Assembly: GCA_017454265.1 (NCBI GenBank)
Contig: JAFTDJ010000049.1
Location: 94,732-158,731, forward strand
From: Bacteroidales bacterium
GTDB lineage: Bacteria > Bacteroidota > Bacteroidia > Bacteroidales > UBA932
Direction of reading: 5' to 3'
Length of the DNA: 64,000 bases
This document shows, piece after piece, positions 55,854 through 62,713 of this stretch (the stretch's first letter is position 1; each line of letters starts with the position of its first letter). The notes below the pieces were generated by a model. It ran no database searches and was not told where the DNA came from. It saw nothing but the letters and a program-made list of their open reading frames with translations. The position numbers and the translations under genes are program-made.

Positions 55854-55942
55854 AGTCTGTGAGTTTTGAGTTTCCGCAATATAGTGAATCTGTGCGTAAG
55901 GGTATAAAAAAATCAGCAAAATATTTTTTGCTGATTTTATTT

Positions 55943-57607
55943 TCAAAAGATTTCATCTGGCATTGGAACGGGGAGACCGGTACTTCGCACAACTGGCATG
56001 CACGCGTCTGCCTTTCTCAGCCTCTCCGAGAGGGCGCCGGCAAGCTCTTTCACCACGTCGGGGTGGTCGCCTGCCAGATTGTGCCGCTCGCCTATGTCTG
56101 CGGCTAAATCGTACAGCTCAAGAGTTCTTGTACGCATACGGTAAACGAGTTTCCACTTTCCGCGGCGTATTGCAGACAGGTAATCTATGTCATCCAGGAC
56201 ATATGGTTTCCACTGATGCGGATAGTGAAAGACAAGTTCTCGGTCGGGATCTATTCCGGACAACGATTCCGGCACGACAAAACTGAAGGCCTCTTTTTGG
56301 CTTCCAAAATTTTGCCGGGCAGCGAGCCGTGAGCCTTTCAGAATGAGATTGTAAAGGTCCTGCCCGTCCACTTCCTGAACTGTAGTATAATTCTCTATTC
56401 CGCCGAAATGCAGCAAAGTAGGGAAGAGGTCTTCGCATATTACCGGAGTGTTGATTCTGGTGCCGGGAGCTATCTTTCCAGGCCAGCATATCAGCATGGG
56501 TACGCGGATGCCGCCTTCGTAGCAGGACGCCTTGCCTTCACGCAGAGGTTTGTTCTGGGTGTGAGGCACACCGCCCTTGTTCTTGTTCTCGGAATTTCCC
56601 CCGTTGTCTCCCATCACTATCAATATGGTGTTCTTCTCTATGCCGCGTTCTTTGAGGAAGGCACGTATCTCGCCCAAGCTTACGTCTACTCCCTCCACCA
56701 TTGATGCGAAACGGGCCTGACCTTCGTCCATTCCTGCATCAAGGTATTTTTGATAAAAGCGGGGATCGTCCTGGATAGGGGTGTGAACTGCATATTGCGA
56801 GAGAAAGAGATAAAAGGGTTTCTTCTCCTGGAGAGGATATTCCAGAGCCTTCAGGGCCTCCCGGGTGAGCGCCTGGGTCATATGGGTTCCGGTACCGTAG
56901 TATTCCATCAGGTTATGAGGGGTAAACGGCACGGCGCGTCCTTCTTTCTTGTTGCCGTAATTGTCTTCCGACCGGTATCCGCATTTTGAAAATTCAACGA
57001 CTCCACCCGCTACATTTACGACAAATCCCATATTATATGGAGAACAGCCCGGAGTGCCGGCAGTGGCCCAGTGTGCTTTACCTACGTGAATCGTAAAATA
57101 ACCGCTTTCTTTGAGCAGCCGGGGATATACGGTTCCGTAGAAGCTGTCTTCTATATTGTCGGATGAACCATCAAAAGCTGGATTGACTCCGTTTACCGCC
57201 CATCGAGGTGTATCAAGACAGCCTTGGGCGAGCGCGGGATCCGTTGCCCAGGGAGAGTCGCACGGGGTGGGATAGGCACTTTCTGCACCACGCAGGCTGG
57301 CAAGTGGATTTGTAATGTGCGTCCGGGCGGAATTTACTCCCGTGAGTATGCTGCTGCGCGTTGGAGAAGACAGCGGACATGCGTAGGCATTGGTGAGAAT
57401 CGTGCCTTCGGATGCCATTTGCAGAAAATTTGGCGTATTATGCCTGAGGTTCTGGGGATACACTTCAGGCCCGAAAGCAACCTGTGTGTCTGTCCAGCCG
57501 AAATCATCGGCCAGAAAGAAAATGATGTTGGGGCGGTCATCTGATTTCTGACATGCTGACAGAGCAATCAGAGGCAGCCCCAACGACACTTTGAGTGCGG
57601 AATGCAT
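55943..57607 (-). CDS. Sulfatase, Ser-type, lipoprotein
   Basis: 554 residues. Lipoprotein signal ending IALSAC (Cys19). Alkaline-phosphatase-fold metal ligands are Asp34-Asp35 (FFLADDFGWTD) and later MGDNGGNSENK. The active-site motif reads S80-S-P-T-R84 (CPLSSPTRSSILTG): serine, not cysteine, is the residue converted to formylglycine, so a Ser-capable anaerobic sulfatase-maturating enzyme is needed; none lies in this window. It should remove sulfate esters from host or dietary glycans. Start 3 nt after the upstream small barrel gene, so it is the last gene of the 57.6-62.7 kb unit. Confidence 0.9.
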   Translation of the reverse strand: MHSALKVSLGLPLIALSACQKSDDRPNIIFFLADDFGWTDTQVAFGPEVYPQNLRHNTPNFLQMASEGTILTNAYACPLSSPTRSSILTGVNSARTHITNPLASLRGAESAYPTPCDSPWATDPALAQGCLDTPRWAVNGVNPAFDGSSDNIEDSFYGTVYPRLLKESGYFTIHVGKAHWATAGTPGCSPYNMGFVVNVAGGVVEFSKCGYRSEDNYGNKKEGRAVPFTPHNLMEYYGTGTHMTQALTREALKALEYPLQEKKPFYLFLSQYAVHTPIQDDPRFYQKYLDAGMDEGQARFASMVEGVDVSLGEIRAFLKERGIEKNTILIVMGDNGGNSENKNKGGVPHTQNKPLREGKASCYEGGIRVPMLICWPGKIAPGTRINTPVICEDLFPTLLHFGGIENYTTVQEVDGQDLYNLILKGSRLAARQNFGSQKEAFSFVVPESLSGIDPDRELVFHYPHQWKPYVLDDIDYLSAIRRGKWKLVYRMRTRTLELYDLAADIGERHNLAGDHPDVVKELAGALSERLRKADACMPVVRSTGLPVPMPDEIF

Positions 57608-57610
57608 ACC

Positions 57611-58156
57611 TTAGAATTCGAATCCTACCCTTAGACCTATCGCACCGAAGTTCCCATAAGGGATATTCGCGTTCTGAAAAATGTAGGTGAGGCCTGCGAT
57701 GAAATTGTTGCGTGGCATTCCGACGCGAACTCCGACTGTGGGGGAAAGGTACAGGCCGTTCTCGAAGAACGTCCAGCCGGCATCGAGGTTCCAATATGGA
57801 ACCACCATCCTGGATTCCTGGGAAATGATGTTGCCCCGGAGGTCGAGATACAACGGAAGTGCGAATCCGCCAATCTGGTCGAAACGGGGGGAAACGCCGA
57901 CGCCGACCTTGAAGAACTCTCCGGTGCGATAACCGGCGATGAGGTCGGCAGATACCCAGAAACCGCCAGCCCTGCCGAAGCCGAGGGCGGGTGTTGCCTG
58001 AACTGCGAACCAGAAGCCCTTGTCAAGGCTCGGATAATCTACATACTGTGCGCGTTTGGGAGTATCGGGGAGCTTGTAGTCTTTATGGTTTTGTGCGTAG
58101 ATTGACGCGGGAGCCATAATCAGCGCAAGGCTGAGCATTAGTGTAATTTTTTTCAT
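57611..58156 (-). CDS. Small outer-membrane beta-barrel protein
   Basis: 181 residues, Sec signal peptide (MKKITLMLSLALIMAPASIYA). After a short linker come eight or so amphipathic strands (FWFAVQATPALGFGRAGGF, WVSADLIAGYRTG, LPLYLDLRGNI, VVPYWNLDAGWTF) ending GAIGLRVGFEF, as for an OmpA/OmpX-size barrel. It overlaps the upstream LPP20-like gene by 4 bp. Probably the membrane anchor or pore of the surrounding envelope unit. Confidence 0.75.
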   Translation of the reverse strand: MKKITLMLSLALIMAPASIYAQNHKDYKLPDTPKRAQYVDYPSLDKGFWFAVQATPALGFGRAGGFWVSADLIAGYRTGEFFKVGVGVSPRFDQIGGFALPLYLDLRGNIISQESRMVVPYWNLDAGWTFFENGLYLSPTVGVRVGMPRNNFIAGLTYIFQNANIPYGNFGAIGLRVGFEF

Positions 58157-58593
58157 AACAATCCGTCTTCTTTGAGTCTTGCCCTGAGCTGGGGCACCAG
58201 TACCCGTACAGTGGTCCCTACTGTGACATCGCGATAGTTCCGGCGTACGCGGGTGGAGCCGGCGCGCTTGTCTTCCATACTCACATATTTAAGGAACTCT
58301 CCGCGATCCATAAAAAAGATGTCGAAGTAGTCCTGATAACGCTGACGGGCGTTCACCTCGGTCATAACAGGACGCATGTTGTAGTCCGTGTTGCCCTTGA
58401 CGACGCCTTTGAACAGAACGTCATAGACGGCCTGCTTCTTGGCCTGCTCCAAGGCGTCAGTACGGTTCCTGCCCGTACCCCATACACGCAGGGTCAGGCT
58501 TCCGTCCATCTCCTTGCTGATGCATTCGGTTTCCTGAGCGAATGCTCCTGCGCAAAGAAGCGCAGCGAAAAATGTTAAAAATATCTTTTTCAT
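58153..58593 (-). CDS. Exported LPP20-like protein, paralogue B
   Basis: 146 residues from ATG 58593 (MKKIFLTFFAALLCAGAFAQ); a start at 58608 would only add five residues before the signal. The mature domain has the LPP20/FlgT-N plan: VWGTGRNRTDALEQAKKQAVYDVLFKGV (glycine turn followed by an Ala-rich helix), then RQRYQDYFDIFFMDRGEFLKYV and VTVGTTVRVLVPQLRARLKEDGLL. It shares this plan and several identical positions with the gene at 60545 (VWG-GR, YF--FF, K--L-ADG/EDG). Sits between the 322-residue protein and the small barrel. Confidence 0.72.
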   Translation of the reverse strand: MKKIFLTFFAALLCAGAFAQETECISKEMDGSLTLRVWGTGRNRTDALEQAKKQAVYDVLFKGVVKGNTDYNMRPVMTEVNARQRYQDYFDIFFMDRGEFLKYVSMEDKRAGSTRVRRNYRDVTVGTTVRVLVPQLRARLKEDGLL

Positions 58594-58594
58594 A

Positions 58595-59563
58595 TCACCA
58601 CCAGCCAAATCTGTTCATATTATAGTAGTTGACAGGGCGCTTGGCCATAGCCTTGCCGACCTCGGCCATAGCGTCGATTCTCTTTGCCTCGAGGTTGATT
58701 CCGGCCTCAAACTGTCTCATCGCGAAGCCCCACTCCCTGCCGTCGAGTTCCTTTACCCTGGATGCGATGGTCTTGGAAAGCTGCATTCCTCCGGCACCAG
58801 CTGAGGAAAGGGGGTGGATCCGGGACAAGTAGGTTGCCGCCTCGTTGGCTCCGCTCCAACTTTGATTTGCATTCCATACGTGAGTGGCCATATTCAGCAG
58901 AGCAGCGCCCTCAACGTCGATTTTTTGCTGAAAAATCTGCTCTGCGGCACGCATTGCTTTGTCGAAGGCGTCTTTGCAGACGGCGGGTACGGTAAAAAGA
59001 AGGGCAATAGCTTCATCGTACCGGTCTTGACCTGCAAGGCCGTTGGCCTCGCTGATCAGGAAGTCAATCTGGGTATTGTACCATTCGATGATCCTGGTTT
59101 TGCCTGTCTCAATGAAGCGCTGAACGGAGGGATCGTCGGTTTTTATCATCTTTACCGCCTGCATATAAGCCTTGGTCTCATTGGTGCCTGCTCCCTTGAT
59201 CTGGTTCAGGGTGCAGGTGGCATACAGGGTTCCGGTGGCCGCATCGCCGATATAGAGTGTCGGAGATAGGACAAGGGCCTGCATAACCGGTGCCGTGGCG
59301 GTACTCTCATGGCTTATCTCCACAATATTGGCGGTAATTATGAACCGGGGGTCGTAGCTGTCTGCCGCCAAACCGTTTTTGGTGGCTATCTGTGTCAACT
59401 TGTTCAGCACTACGTTGGCGGCGGCGGCAGGAATGTAGCTGTTCTCAAAGATGACAGGGGTGAGGGCGATGCGACCCCTGTCGTCCATTTTGCTCTCATT
59501 GTTCTGTGCAAAGGCTGCAATGCATAATGTGGCCAGAACCAAACTTGCAAATATCTTTTTCAT
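58595..59563 (-). CDS. Exported CsgG/LPP20-like protein, unknown function
   Basis: 322 residues with signal peptide MKKIFASLVLATLCIAAFAQ. Residues 30-125 have the alternating beta/alpha order of CsgG-LpoB-like domains (ALTPVIFENSYIPAAAANVVLNKLTQIAT, FIITANIVEISHES, TLYIGDAATGTLYATC). Residues 150-240 are helical (DRYDEAIALLFTVPAVCKDAFDKAMRAAEQIFQQ), TPR-like. No lipobox. One of four consecutive genes of this general kind. Family resemblance is by eye and modest. Confidence 0.65.
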   Translation of the reverse strand: MKKIFASLVLATLCIAAFAQNNESKMDDRGRIALTPVIFENSYIPAAAANVVLNKLTQIATKNGLAADSYDPRFIITANIVEISHESTATAPVMQALVLSPTLYIGDAATGTLYATCTLNQIKGAGTNETKAYMQAVKMIKTDDPSVQRFIETGKTRIIEWYNTQIDFLISEANGLAGQDRYDEAIALLFTVPAVCKDAFDKAMRAAEQIFQQKIDVEGAALLNMATHVWNANQSWSGANEAATYLSRIHPLSSAGAGGMQLSKTIASRVKELDGREWGFAMRQFEAGINLEAKRIDAMAEVGKAMAKRPVNYYNMNRFGWW

Positions 59564-59572
59564 ATCAGTTCA

Positions 59573-60541
59573 TTATTTGTCGCCTATGGTAATCCATACT
59601 TCACCGAGCCCCCGGGGAGATGAACCCACCACGAGGCTATACGGTTTTTTCTTGAGCATGCGAATCAGCGGACGGGCAAAAGCTTCTGCATCGATAGCGA
59701 CGTCGCGACCGTTCATGTTCTGGGCATACAGAGGGATGCGAACCTGATTGAACCTCAGACGGTTGGCGGATTTTGCCGCAGTGGTGAAACGACCTTCTAC
59801 GGTATTGTCGGCCATCCAGGCCTCAATAATTTCGGCAAGCTCATACGGCTCTCCGTTGATTTCGAATTCCTCTTCGAAGTCAATGGGGCAGTTGTCGTAG
59901 CAGAGTAGAGTCACAGAGACTTCGCGGCCGTTGGCGAAGAGGTCGTCGAAGTAATGCTGGAGTCCGCTGAGGAAATTGTCCTTGAAGCTGAGCACGCACT
60001 CCTCCAGAAGAGTGGTCATAGGTACGTTGGCATCGGAACTCAAGCCGGTGTTGCCGGAGATGAGTTTGGATGAATACGCGTCGATGGCCTGCAGGTTGAA
60101 ACTCACCTGTTTGCGCGGGCCGTTACGGTGGATTTCATAGTCAAGATCCAGTATGATATCCGCCTTGGCGGTACGGCGGAGCCTTTCCAGAGGAGTTTCG
60201 TTAATCTCCCCGCCGCTTTTGCCGGTCATCATGGCGAGCTCGGCATCTTCTGTCTGGAGACGTTTCAATTCCTGCTCCAATGACTGGATGGGGAAGTCGT
60301 TTTTTGCCATAAAGTCGCCCATTGCGGAAACCAGGGTGCGGATGTCGCTGTTTTCCCTCATTGCCCGGGCGTAGTCGGGAGCGACGCTCACGGCACCGGT
60401 TGTGGTCACTTGCTGGGTGAAACCGTTGCGTGTGCAGAAAGCTTCACTGGGGACCACCATTATGGTCGGTTTTTTTGCCTGGGACCAGCCCGAGACTGAA
60501 CAGGCGAGCAGCAACGCTGCCATAATCAATGATTTCTTCAT
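59573..60541 (-). CDS. DUF6175-like exported protein with CsgG/LpoB-like fold pattern
   Basis: 322 residues, signal peptide MKKSLIMAALLLACSVSGWSQ. The order KPTIMVVPSEAF, an N-terminal helix set, ADIILDLDYEI, VSFNLQAIDAYSSKLISGNTG fits the CsgG/LpoB superfamily (beta-alpha-beta with a characteristic 'A-D-x-I-L...D...S-G' run). The second half (QHYFDDLFANGREVSVTLLCYDN and the final IRMLKKKPYSLVVGSSPRGLGEVWI) appears to be a repeat of a smaller domain. CsgG forms the curli pore; LpoB activates a cell-wall synthase. Which, if either, applies is unknown. Confidence 0.68.
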   Translation of the reverse strand: MKKSLIMAALLLACSVSGWSQAKKPTIMVVPSEAFCTRNGFTQQVTTTGAVSVAPDYARAMRENSDIRTLVSAMGDFMAKNDFPIQSLEQELKRLQTEDAELAMMTGKSGGEINETPLERLRRTAKADIILDLDYEIHRNGPRKQVSFNLQAIDAYSSKLISGNTGLSSDANVPMTTLLEECVLSFKDNFLSGLQHYFDDLFANGREVSVTLLCYDNCPIDFEEEFEINGEPYELAEIIEAWMADNTVEGRFTTAAKSANRLRFNQVRIPLYAQNMNGRDVAIDAEAFARPLIRMLKKKPYSLVVGSSPRGLGEVWITIGDK

Positions 60542-60544
60542 ATC

Positions 60545-61060
60545 TTAAAAACCCGAACTAAGTTTGCGTGCAATACCGTCTGCCTCCAACTTGTGCTTGA
60601 GGTTGTCGTACATCACCTGTACGTAAATGGCTACTTTGTAACCCCCCTTGACTTTCCTGCAGTCGGTTCCTGAAGGGACTCCGTCCGTGGTCATATTGAC
60701 ATAAGCCAGATATGGACCGCCGGCGGCGAAGAAGTTCTGGAAATAATCCTCGTGAGATACGAGGGTGTCCGGATTGGGGCAGATGGGGGGCGTGCTCATT
60801 GCAGAAGCGTTGCCTGGCAGCCCGCGGAAAATGCAAGCGTGGACGGCGTTTTCCTTTGCGGCCATAACGGCTTTGTCAACAGTGCGGCCATAGCCCCAGA
60901 CCTTAACGAATTTTGTGCCGTCAACACCTACCTTTTCAGTAGTGATTTCATAGTTGTCCCAACTGTTGAAAGACTTTCTCCTGTCTTTGTTCTGGGCGCT
61001 GACGCTCACTGCCGATGCGGTCATCAATAGCGTGAAGGCGATAAACAGTACTTTTTTCAT
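60545..61060 (-). CDS. Exported LPP20-like protein, paralogue A
   Basis: 171 residues, signal peptide MKKVLFIAFTLLMTASAVSVSAQ. The mature domain begins FVKVWGYGRTVDKAVMAAKENAVHACIFRGLPG, continues EDYFQNFFAAGGPYLAYVNM and ends YKVAIYVQVMYDNLKHKLEADGIA, the same plan as the gene at 58153. It is longer by an insertion (about 80-100) with a Cys-Pro pair. Located between the 529-residue gene and the DUF6175-like gene with gaps of 13 and 3 nt. Confidence 0.72.
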   Translation of the reverse strand: MKKVLFIAFTLLMTASAVSVSAQNKDRRKSFNSWDNYEITTEKVGVDGTKFVKVWGYGRTVDKAVMAAKENAVHACIFRGLPGNASAMSTPPICPNPDTLVSHEDYFQNFFAAGGPYLAYVNMTTDGVPSGTDCRKVKGGYKVAIYVQVMYDNLKHKLEADGIARKLSSGF

Positions 61061-61073
61061 TATACTCTAAAAT

Positions 61074-62663
61074 TTAGAATGTCCATTTGACACCTGCCTG
61101 AAAACCAAGACGGCTTCCGTGGTTGGCGCTGTTGTTCCACAATTCATAAGTGTTTCCGCGTAAAGGAGTAAGCCAGTCGAAGCATACCTTGCCGAACAAT
61201 TGCAAGGGGTATGCCACATTCACGGAAGCCCGGAATCCCGGCTCGAGCGCCAGGGCGGATTTGCTCATAAAACTGGCCGTTGAGCTTGTGCCGGATGAGA
61301 CGGGACCCACATAATCGTTAATTAAGGAAATATATGGCATCAGCTCAATGAACCGGCTTAGGTGGAAAGCATAACCATATCCAATTCCGAAGTTGACTGC
61401 GGACACCCCGGAAGCGGTTTTAAGGTCGAATGCGCCACCCAAAAGCACATATGACATGGTTCCGTTGGTATTAACGTTCATCAGTAAGTCCATATCGATG
61501 GCAAGTGATGCCCCCGGACATATTCCTCCGAACTTGACGCCCGCCATTACTCCGAATTTGAGATCGTTGCTTTGCTTGATAGTCCAACCTTCCTCGATGT
61601 TGGCCATGCCGGATATCTGGTAGAACTTGGAGGGCTCGGTTTCACCTGATGCCATACCGGAGTTATCGGAAATTTCCGTAGCACGCAAGTATCCGCGTGG
61701 TACGGAGATCAGGTTGCCGGCTTCGTCTTCACGATATGAATATGCGCGGTAACGGGCACCGTTCCTAAGACCTTCCTTCGTGCCGATTTTTGCTCGCAAA
61801 GGCTTTTTAGCTGCTATCGTCACGGCTACTTCCCAGTCGGACAACTGATTCTCCAAATGGGTTACGATGTCTGACAAAGAATTGTAAATGGCTTTCTTCG
61901 GGTCTGATGAGGACCCTGATGCGCTGACGACCGCCGCTTGCTCCATCAAGGGAGGGAAGTCGATGAAGGCCTGGCGCTTTGCAGTCTTGGTGGCGTCGTC
62001 GTCTTCTTCGTAAATCCAGCATTTGTCGTAGAATTCGTTCAGTTGTTCCGCAGAGAGGCCGAGCTTGTATGCATATGCTTTGGTGGAGGCAGACCAGGTT
62101 ACCTTTCCTTTGTCGTCAACCTTCTTCTGCAAGCTGTAGGGATCGACTACAACTACGTAACTGTGGCTCACAAGGCCGTGTCCGGCGTCTCCGAGAGCTT
62201 CAATTCCAACCCGTGATGCGCGGGCGTTTATGACGTCCTGGTCTTTTGCATCGTAGTTCCCGCGATAGCGTATGAGTTTGTCATTCATAAACCCCTGTGA
62301 ATCGCGCCCGAATATGTAGGTGAGAATTTCCTTGTCCAAAGATTTCTCCCTGACGGCAGAGGAAATGACATCAGTAGGAATTATGTAATTGTAAGTTGGG
62401 CTCTGGGAAGAGACGGCTCTGCTCCGGGAAACCTGAATCGTTTCCGTAGCAATCTTGTTGAGGTCGAATTTTTCGCCGGGGTTGTACGCTTTCACTGCGG
62501 CGAGAACGTCTGAATCATAGACGTCTCCGCGTTGCACGGCTATGAAAGAGATGCTGTTGCGGTTGTAGTCGCTGGTTACGACTTCCTTAACCTTGGCCTG
62601 CGCGCCGGCCAGAACAGGCAGCAGGAGAGCCAGGGTAACTGTGAACTTGATCTTACTATCCAT
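61074..62663 (-). CDS. Exported protein with FlgT-C-like segment and beta-barrel end
   Basis: 529 residues from ATG 62663 (MDSKIKFTVTLALLLPVLAGAQA signal). The very long frame to 63335 is rejected because it covers the divergent guanylyltransferase gene. The N-terminal 250 residues are mixed alpha/beta (VKEVVTSDYNRNSISFIAV...). About 285-320 (IGTKEGLRNGARYRAYSYRE, GYLRATEISDNS) matches the FlgT C-terminal/CsgG-associated beta fold. From about 360 on, a transmembrane-barrel-like region (FGVMAGVKFGG, FGIGYGYAFHLSRFIELMPY) ends in GFQAGVKWTF. First gene of the seven-gene unit, 23 nt behind its -7 box. Confidence 0.75.
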   Translation of the reverse strand: MDSKIKFTVTLALLLPVLAGAQAKVKEVVTSDYNRNSISFIAVQRGDVYDSDVLAAVKAYNPGEKFDLNKIATETIQVSRSRAVSSQSPTYNYIIPTDVISSAVREKSLDKEILTYIFGRDSQGFMNDKLIRYRGNYDAKDQDVINARASRVGIEALGDAGHGLVSHSYVVVVDPYSLQKKVDDKGKVTWSASTKAYAYKLGLSAEQLNEFYDKCWIYEEDDDATKTAKRQAFIDFPPLMEQAAVVSASGSSSDPKKAIYNSLSDIVTHLENQLSDWEVAVTIAAKKPLRAKIGTKEGLRNGARYRAYSYREDEAGNLISVPRGYLRATEISDNSGMASGETEPSKFYQISGMANIEEGWTIKQSNDLKFGVMAGVKFGGICPGASLAIDMDLLMNVNTNGTMSYVLLGGAFDLKTASGVSAVNFGIGYGYAFHLSRFIELMPYISLINDYVGPVSSGTSSTASFMSKSALALEPGFRASVNVAYPLQLFGKVCFDWLTPLRGNTYELWNNSANHGSRLGFQAGVKWTF

Positions 62664-62685
62664 AAGTATATTTGGTTGGTAGCTA

Positions 62686-62713
62686 CAAATATAAACAAAA
62701 TATATTACTTTTG
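62686..62713. promoter_or_regulatory. Divergent promoter of the envelope unit and the guanylyltransferase gene
   Basis: Minus-strand TATATTTG is read from 62693 to 62686; plus-strand TACTTTTG lies at 62706-62713. The plus box ends 4 nt before ATG 62718, so a leaderless message is predicted. Neither has a clear TTTG 19 nt upstream. Confidence 0.6.

What the first reader, a model, noticed from the sequence alone, without database searches (positions are those of the whole stretch)
55943..62693. Seven-gene envelope unit with repeated LPP20/FlgT/CsgG-like proteins, a small barrel and a Ser-type sulfatase
Seen: seven minus-strand genes with gaps of 13 nt or less or overlaps, one -7 box ahead, six with Sec signals and one lipoprotein. 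Two (58153, 60545) are paralogues with an LPP20/FlgT-N-like plan. One (59573) has a CsgG/LpoB-like order with an A-D-I-I-L-D-L-D run. One (61074) has a FlgT-C-like segment joined to a barrel. Known: FlgT, LPP20, CsgG and LpoB are outer-membrane-associated parts of multi-protein envelope assemblies. Inference: the products form one complex at the outer membrane of a non-flagellated bacterium, perhaps a secretion pore or wall-synthase activator. This is the best candidate in the window for an undescribed system.
Basis: partly seen in the sequence, partly recalled or inferred. Interest (0 to 1): 0.8.

Follow-up and report, generated by a model that had tools for sequence, protein, structure and literature searches.

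The report
Conserved Bacteroidota outer-envelope protein operon
A run of exported-protein genes in a probably gut-dwelling bacterium contains a gene set found here and there across one bacterial phylum, whose parts resemble proteins that form rings and pores at the outer membrane elsewhere, so it may be an undescribed envelope assembly, although its folds and its function remain untested.

Summary
In detail: seven minus-strand genes, gaps of 13 nt or less, one -7 box ahead (62693-62686), a hairpin terminator behind (55938-55909). They are not one evolutionary unit. The conserved core is g1-g2-g3-g4 (61074-62663, 60545, 59573 = DUF6175, 58595). In 80 named loci (best 80 of 497), g2 lies just ahead of g3 in 74 of 80, g4 just behind in 76 of 78 testable, g1 ahead in 59 of 74 testable. 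g5 and g6 occur only in the closest relatives; the sulfatase in 4 of 80. Relatives carry LPP20-family genes in the same operon (45 of 80 loci), three divergent genomes a Pfam CsgG gene; g2 is fused to g3 in nine genomes, LPP20 to a g4-like domain in five. Profile comparison gives weak, correctly ordered matches: g2 to LPP20, g3 and g4 to CsgG, g1's middle to the FlgT-C-like end of CsgG proteins; each beats 56 decoys and 100 column shuffles. No window protein reaches a Pfam cut-off for these families or a matching PDB chain, and structure prediction was off. Most likely an outer-membrane-associated oligomeric scaffold without a flagellum; function untested.

The parts
62686..62693 (-). Bacteroidota-type -7 promoter box (TATATTTG), 22 nt ahead of the start codon of g1
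   Evidence: meaning of the motif recalled
61074..62663 (-). g1: exported protein, 529 aa, N-terminal domain of unknown fold, FlgT-C-like middle, C-terminal part that reads like a beta-barrel; core member
61614..61826 (-). approximate FlgT-C-like segment of g1 (KPLRAKIGTKEGL..RYRAY..), similar to the C-terminal part of Bacteroidota CsgG proteins
   Evidence: weak but above all decoys and shuffles
61074..61586 (-). approximate barrel-like C-terminus of g1; 4 of 45 family members match PF13505; absent in short g1 such as that of Pedobacter polaris (L107)
60545..61060 (-). g2: exported protein (171 aa) with weak LPP20 similarity, core member; reads like a lipoprotein in some relatives
59573..60541 (-). 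g3: DUF6175 (PF19672), core member, weak CsgG-like similarity around residues 110-165
58595..59563 (-). g4: exported protein, N-terminal part with weak CsgG similarity, C-terminal half TPR-like in some members, core member
58153..58593 (-). g5: paralogue of g2, only in the closest relatives, in the slot after g4 where other relatives carry LPP20-family genes
57611..58156 (-). g6: small exported protein that reads like a beta-barrel, only in the closest relatives
   Evidence: no Pfam match
55943..57607 (-). g7: Ser-type sulfatase lipoprotein, in 4 of 80 relatives, probably not part of the conserved system
55909..55938 (-). intrinsic-terminator-like hairpin with T run that ends the unit

Best explanation
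The conserved part (g1 to g4) is a Bacteroidota envelope operon, marked by DUF6175, built from domains of the kinds seen in CsgG, LPP20/FlgP and FlgT. Shown: conserved order, co-occurrence, gene fusions, and CsgG or LPP20 genes in the same operons of relatives. Inferred: the products are exported; g1 is anchored in the outer membrane by its barrel; g2 (a lipoprotein in some taxa) and the LPP20 proteins multimerise as SHS2-type units; g3 and g4 form a CsgG/TolB-N-like layer. Together they would make an oligomeric, perhaps ring-like, scaffold at the periplasmic face of the outer membrane that works like the H-ring of polar flagella but without a flagellum, most likely supporting outer-membrane integrity. 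In the window's closest relatives the LPP20 genes appear replaced by a second g2 copy (g5), with a small barrel and, in a few genomes, a sulfatase added behind.
For: Core order in 80 named loci: g2 ahead of g3 in 74 of 80 (within 120 nt in 70, three farther, one fused), g4 behind in 76 of 78 testable, g1 in 59 of 74 testable. Phylum survey of 247 genomes: DUF6175 in 11; 8 of 8 genomes with g2, 8 of 9 with g4 and 9 of 11 with g1 are among those 11. LPP20-family genes in 45 of 80 loci; an iterated LPP20 profile recruits 45 of 53 and 17 of 17 members of the two neighbour families at E below 1e-4, reversed control 0. Family survey: the main LPP20 family in 16 of 59 genomes, all 16 among the 27 of 59 with DUF6175, 12 of 16 within 2 kb of it. 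Pfam CsgG over cut-off in the operon of three genomes: 33.4, 39.1 and 21.1 bits against 20.8. ORFs after a g2-g3 fusion: all five scanned (L044, L212, L213, L214, L217) match Pfam LPP20 over cut-off, 26.8 to 39.7 bits against 25.9; five such ORFs (L212, L213, L215, L216, L217) also carry a g4-like domain. hhalign: g2-LPP20, g3-CsgG, g4-CsgG, g1 middle-FlgT-C-like each above all 56 decoys and all 100 column shuffles. FlgP, Lpp20 and FlgT share an SHS2-like fold, and FlgT and FlgP form outer-membrane-associated rings (PMC12222027, passages; also PMC11756786, passages).
Against: Profile-profile matches are weak (hhalign probability 10 to 29 %) and local (28 to 53 columns). LPP20 also beat all 40 shuffles for three pairs not predicted (g4, g1 N-part, g1 middle), so part of the signal is unspecific; decoys were neighbour gene families and their reversals, not a set of exported proteins. 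Sequence-profile cross-hits are near chance (best E 0.0024 to 1.8 in 5576 ORFs). No window protein reaches a Pfam cut-off for these families; profiles of g1-g4 find no CsgG, FlgT, LPP20 or LpoB chain in the PDB. g1 lacks the barrel in some relatives, is not beside g2/g3 in 15 of 74 testable loci, and in four of the 247-genome sample lies on another contig than DUF6175 (G137, G183, G195, G295). The LPP20 gene lies elsewhere than DUF6175 in 4 of 16 genomes. No expression or experimental data.
Confidence: 0.5

Rival explanations
1. A CsgG-like secretion channel: g3/g4 (or the CsgG protein in relatives) form a pore in the outer membrane that exports a substrate, with g1 and LPP20 as accessories.
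For: CsgG proteins over cut-off in the operon of three relatives; a barrel-like protein g1 in the operon.
Against: Window proteins only weakly resemble CsgG; the matches cover about 50 columns, and the membrane hairpins that make the CsgG pore were not tested; the own genome has no Pfam CsgG (assembly 75.65 % complete). Curli subunits were not searched for.
Confidence: 0.15
2. A regulator of wall synthesis or of outer-membrane to wall contact of the LpoB kind: periplasmic subunits reach a wall enzyme.
For: CsgG-type proteins in the operon of relatives match LpoB (PF13036) just below cut-off (L042 21.5, L220 21.7 against 22.3 bits); five of five stand-alone Bacteroidota CsgG proteins scanned match LpoB over cut-off.
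Against: The same proteins match CsgG as well or better, so this does not separate the two; no window protein matches LpoB. Wall enzymes beside the core were not searched for.
Confidence: 0.12
3. The likeness to CsgG, LPP20 and FlgT is chance or reflects only generic beta-alpha periplasmic proteins; g1-g4 are a Bacteroidota system with new folds.
For: No significant match to Pfam (other than DUF6175) or to the PDB for the core proteins; near-chance sequence-profile cross-hits; some unspecific LPP20 signal.
Against: Four of four predicted pairs, and none of the 14 others, rank above all 56 decoys and the four beat 100 shuffles each; CsgG and LPP20 genes lie in, or are fused into, the same operons.
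Confidence: 0.15
4. The window's seven genes form a glycan-handling unit around the sulfatase.
For: g7 starts 3 nt after g6 and the terminator follows g7.
Against: The sulfatase is found in 4 of 80 relatives, in one of them (L055) as fragments only, and no glycan-related Pfam family was matched by g1-g6.
Confidence: 0.05

Closest known systems
DUF6175 (Pfam PF19672)
   Same: g3 is a full-length member, 306.3 bits against a cut-off of 23
   Different: Pfam lists it as of unknown function; the search term DUF6175 gave 0 papers in the held library
LPP20 (PF02169) and FlgP
   Same: Relatives carry LPP20-family genes in the same operon, and LPP20 fused to a g4-like domain; g2 resembles LPP20 weakly
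   Different: g2 and g5 themselves do not match PF02169; no flagellar link found
CsgG (PF03783) with FlgT-C-like C-terminus, and its TolB-N/LpoB relatives
   Same: CsgG genes directly beside g2-g3-g4 in three divergent genomes; g3 and g4 N-part weakly similar
   Different: No window protein matches PF03783
FlgT-FlgO-FlgP H-ring of polar flagella
   Same: Similar set of domain kinds (SHS2/LPP20, CsgG/TolB-N-like, FlgT-C-like) at the outer membrane; domain make-up of FlgT and FlgO is recalled, the shared fold of FlgP, Lpp20 and FlgT is from PMC12222027 (passages)
   Different: No flagellar export gate gene found in the own genome (assembly 75.65 % complete); g1 carries a barrel; no counterpart of DUF6175 is known to me in the H-ring

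Membership tests
DUF6175 (PF19672) | Pfam match over curated cut-off, full length | tested here: met
   g3: 306.3 bits, profile 1-293 of 293
CsgG (PF03783) | Pfam match over curated cut-off | tested here: not met
   No window protein at E up to 1; own genome 0 matches. Operon neighbours in three relatives do match
CsgG (PF03783) | CsgG-domain fold of g3 and g4 N-part | tested here: inconclusive
   hhalign above all 56 decoys and 100 shuffles but probability only 10 % and 20 %; PDB profile search negative; structure prediction off
LPP20 (PF02169) | Pfam match over curated cut-off | tested here: not met
   g2, g5: none; own genome 0 matches (the model rings in 29 of 198 genomes)
LPP20 (PF02169) | SHS2-type fold of g2/g5 | tested here: inconclusive
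   hhalign g2-LPP20 score 23.7 and 25.4, above decoys and shuffles, 28 columns; unspecific LPP20 signal for other queries
FlgT / H-ring | FlgT_C (PF16538) over cut-off in g1 | tested here: not met
   None for g1; CsgG proteins of relatives give sub-cut-off FlgT_C matches (E 0.022 to 0.054)
FlgT / H-ring | Encoded in a flagellated genome | tested here: not met
   PF00771 export gate: 0 in own genome, rings in 4 of 14 controls; assembly 75.65 % complete
LpoB activator | LpoB Pfam match (PF13036) | tested here: not met
   None in window proteins
LpoB activator | Contact with a penicillin-binding protein | not testable with these tools
   needs experiment
S1 sulfatase (PF00884) | Pfam match and C/S-x-P-x-R motif | tested here: met
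   131.9 bits; SSPTR at residue 80; the motif's meaning is recalled

The most novel reading that the evidence does not exclude
A flagellum-free relative of the flagellar outer-membrane ring kit (SHS2/LPP20, CsgG/TolB-N-like and FlgT-C-like modules, the last on a beta-barrel) exists across Bacteroidota as a stand-alone outer-membrane ring or scaffold, with DUF6175 as its signature part; the flagellar H-ring and the curli channel would be two specialised uses of one older envelope module kit.
Probability: 0.28. Interest if true: 0.78.

Novelty: new variant of a known kind. Interest (0 to 1): 0.58.

Why it matters
It ties an uncharacterised family (DUF6175) and three core families without a Pfam match in the window to known outer-membrane ring and pore modules through gene order and fusions, in a phylum common in animal guts. 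If the products do assemble, it would give a non-flagellar setting in which to study what LPP20- and FlgT-type proteins do, and it gives clear gene sets for deletion and co-purification in culturable carriers such as Bacteroides caecigallinarum and Pedobacter strains.

Tried and rejected
Searches of the PDB by sequence (g3 only) and by profile (g3, g2, g4, g1) gave no hit to CsgG, FlgT, LPP20 or LpoB; the best were three entries of the regulator RcdA against g3 (E 0.023 to 0.027), taken as chance. A first hhalign panel with small profiles was suggestive only; it was repeated with larger profiles, decoys and shuffles. The idea that g4 and g3 are related to each other got no support (signal peptide only). 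The idea that g1's N-terminal part is CsgG-like got no support. The idea that g6 and the g1 barrel are related got no support. The seven-gene unit as one conserved system was rejected. An early iterated search mixed g2, g3 and g5 through a fused ORF; it was redone by domain. A mixed-fragment alignment (A9) appeared to place g4 rows wrongly and was dropped for A10. A lipobox pattern for g2 flagged ten sequences of which only L127 is among those I call lipoprotein-like by eye (L096, L106, L119, L127), so the lipoprotein call is by eye only. Further paper searches gave nothing on this operon by their listings; in one paper checked (PMC8831229) the LPP20 match was the start of a gene name.
Full report
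What is there. The seven genes, their strand and their spacing are as described. I call them g1 (61074-62663), g2 (60545-61060), g3 (59573-60541), g4 (58595-59563), g5 (58153-58593), g6 (57611-58156) and g7 (55943-57607). One -7 box lies 22 nt ahead of the g1 start codon and none lies inside the unit on that strand. A hairpin with a T run directly after g7 folds at -13.3 kcal/mol, better than all 200 shuffles. So the seven genes are plausibly one transcript. Of the seven, Pfam names only g3 (DUF6175, E 2.4e-91) and g7 (sulfatase, E 3.8e-38); NCBIfam names none of g1 to g6 (only hit 11.3 bits).

The conserved unit is smaller and wider than the finding. A DUF6175 search gave 27 of 59 genomes in the window's family, the own genome included, and 11 of 247 in the phylum, the own genome included. 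A scan of named genomes found 497 relatives of g3, of which the tool kept the best 80. By their titles they come from Bacteroidales (Alistipes, Bacteroides, Phocaeicola, Parabacteroides, Paludibacter, Prolixibacteraceae, Salinivirgaceae, Prevotellaceae and many rumen assemblies), Pedobacter, a Flavobacterium assembly and Saprospiraceae; one is filed as Ruminococcus. In these 80 loci g2 is ahead of g3 in 74 (70 within 120 nt, three at 175 to 657 nt, one fused), g4 is behind g3 in 76 of 78 testable loci, and g1 ahead in 59 of 74 testable. In the phylum sample g2 was found in 8 genomes, g4 in 9 and g1 in 11 of 247; 8 of 8, 8 of 9 and 9 of 11 of these are among the 11 DUF6175 genomes. The extra genomes match only the TPR part of g4 or the barrel part of g1. 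In four of the nine, g1 is on another contig than DUF6175 (G137, G183, G195, G295). g5 is in 16 of 80 loci, g6 in 15 and the sulfatase in 4, one of them only as fragments. These are the loci closest to the window.

LPP20 belongs to the operon in relatives. A clustering of neighbours showed that the commonest further gene is one family present in 44 of 80 loci (53 members, all on the operon's strand), usually behind g4; a second family is in 17 loci (16 of 17 members on the operon's strand). Eight of 38 members of the first and 8 of 16 of the second that were scanned match Pfam LPP20 at E up to 0.1, best 1.1e-4 and 1.9e-6. A profile made from 20 Pfam-detected LPP20 domains of other Bacteroidota and iterated recruits 45 of 53 and 17 of 17 members at E below 1e-4; before iteration it recruits 12 and 5; reversed sequences give 0. 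Together the two families occur in 45 of 80 loci. None of the 16 loci with g5 shows either family (all but one of the 16 have at least 2.6 kb of sequence behind g5), and g5 sits in the slot after g4, so g5 looks like a replacement. In the family survey, 16 of 59 genomes carry the first family; all 16 are among the 27 with DUF6175, and in 12 the two lie on one contig within 2 kb. In nine of the loci without g1, a short LPP20-like gene stands ahead of the core.

Fusions. g2 and g3 form one ORF in nine genomes (L125; L044, L045, L046; L212-L216); the g2 part is weak in two (L045 E 2e-3, L215 E 6e-3). In five genomes the ORF next to the DUF6175 ORF carries an LPP20 domain and a g4-like domain (L212, L213, L215, L216, L217; g4 part E 2e-7 to 1e-4). 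A sixth such ORF (L226) has no DUF6175 match in its stretch. The LPP20 part is over the Pfam cut-off in all five ORFs scanned behind fusions (L044 34.9, L212 26.8, L213 32.4, L214 32.4, L217 39.7 bits against 25.9; L044 and L214 have no g4 match).

CsgG. In three divergent genomes a CsgG protein over the Pfam cut-off lies directly beside g2-g3-g4: ahead of g2 in L042 (33.4 bits) and L220 (21.1 bits against 20.8), behind g4 in L043 (39.1 bits, two CsgG stretches and an end that reads like a barrel). L042 also has a sub-cut-off FlgT_C match in its C-terminal part (E 0.022). CsgG-LPP20 gene pairs or trios without DUF6175 in the fetched stretch occur in other places of the relatives (L170-L175).

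Are the window proteins themselves of these families? By Pfam, no. By profile against the PDB, no for g1-g4. Sequence-profile cross-hits are near chance (LPP20-type profiles to g2 best E 0.0024, CsgG to g4 0.047, CsgG to g3 1.8, FlgT-C-like to g1 0.056, in 5576 ORFs). By profile-profile comparison there is a weak, ordered signal. With extended profiles, 18 query-target pairs were compared against 56 decoys each, 28 neighbour gene families and their reversals. Exactly four pairs rank above all decoys: g2 with LPP20 (score 23.7), g3 N-part with CsgG (23.8), g4 N-part with CsgG (23.9) and g1 middle with the C-terminal part of Bacteroidota CsgG proteins (25.5). All four exceed all 100 column shuffles of the target. 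Against this: hhalign probabilities are 10 to 29 %, the matches cover 28 to 53 columns, the decoys are not matched for exported proteins, and LPP20 also exceeded all 40 shuffles for three pairs not predicted (g4, g1 N-part, g1 middle; ten non-predicted pairs were tested there). The C-terminal part of Bacteroidota CsgG proteins is itself only a sub-cut-off FlgT_C match (2 of 5 scanned, and L042). I therefore treat fold membership as likely but unproven.

Placement in the envelope. Core products begin with signal peptides as read by eye; g2 looks like a lipoprotein in several relatives (L096, L106, L119, L127, L042 and L043; by eye). g1 ends in a part that reads like a barrel (PF13505 in 4 of 45 members at E up to 0.1), which is missing in short g1 proteins such as that of Pedobacter polaris (L107). 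The g4 C-terminal half matches TPR-type models in some members (16 of 50 for the commonest).

What it may do. FlgP, Lpp20 and FlgT share an SHS2-like fold, FlgP and FlgT form outer-membrane-associated rings, and ring formation goes with an insert behind the first helix (PMC12222027, passages). In the Helicobacter motor, Lpp20 resembles FlgP and FlgT, and the FapH ring helps to keep the outer-membrane barrier (PMC11756786, passages). The own genome shows no flagellar export gate (75.65 % complete). The economical reading is a non-flagellar oligomeric scaffold at the outer membrane; this step is inference. In five loci of Alistipes and Bacteroides type the operon also holds a zinc-ribbon-like protein and an SPFH-GYF protein (L062, L067, L080-L082; Pfam on one of each, the zinc ribbon below cut-off), a pair that recalls membrane-stress genes of other bacteria (recalled, not tested), which would fit a role in envelope integrity.

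Literature. DUF6175: 0 papers. LPP20, FlgT, CsgG and Bacteroidetes, at least three together: 0 papers. Of 24 papers holding three or more of FlgO, FlgP, FlgT, CsgG, LpoB and LPP20, the 20 listed are by title about flagella, motility or genomes (listing only). LPP20 with Bacteroid-: 12 papers, none about such an operon by title (listing). The held library has open-licence papers only, so absence from print is not shown.

Verdict. The interesting object is the DUF6175 core with its LPP20 and CsgG partners, not the seven-gene run with the sulfatase.

Noticed in passing
L062, L067, L080, L081, L082 (between g4 and the LPP20 genes): A zinc-ribbon-like protein, an SPFH (Band_7_1)-GYF protein and a small protein are inserted in the operon; they recall membrane-stress gene pairs of other bacteria (recalled).
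   Followed up: partly
L170-L175: CsgG-like and LPP20 genes stand close together in relatives without DUF6175 in the fetched stretch, some as CsgG-LPP20-CsgG runs.
   Followed up: partly
L099:8832-11531 and L172:2141-3637: A neighbour family with a long polar helix lies beside LPP20 genes of the DUF6175 operon (cluster 17); a similar-looking protein lies in a CsgG-LPP20 run. The likeness of the two is by eye.
   Followed up: no
L055:11952-12339: The sulfatase slot holds two short overlapping fragments, as if the sulfatase gene had decayed.
   Followed up: no
window:51748-55946: Behind the terminator lie a lipoprotein-like protein with DUF4493 and DUF6359 and then an M16 peptidase; both also lie near the unit in several of the closest relatives, in varying orientation.
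   Followed up: no
L077: A contig filed as Ruminococcus carries this Bacteroidota operon, probably a misfiled assembly.
   Followed up: no
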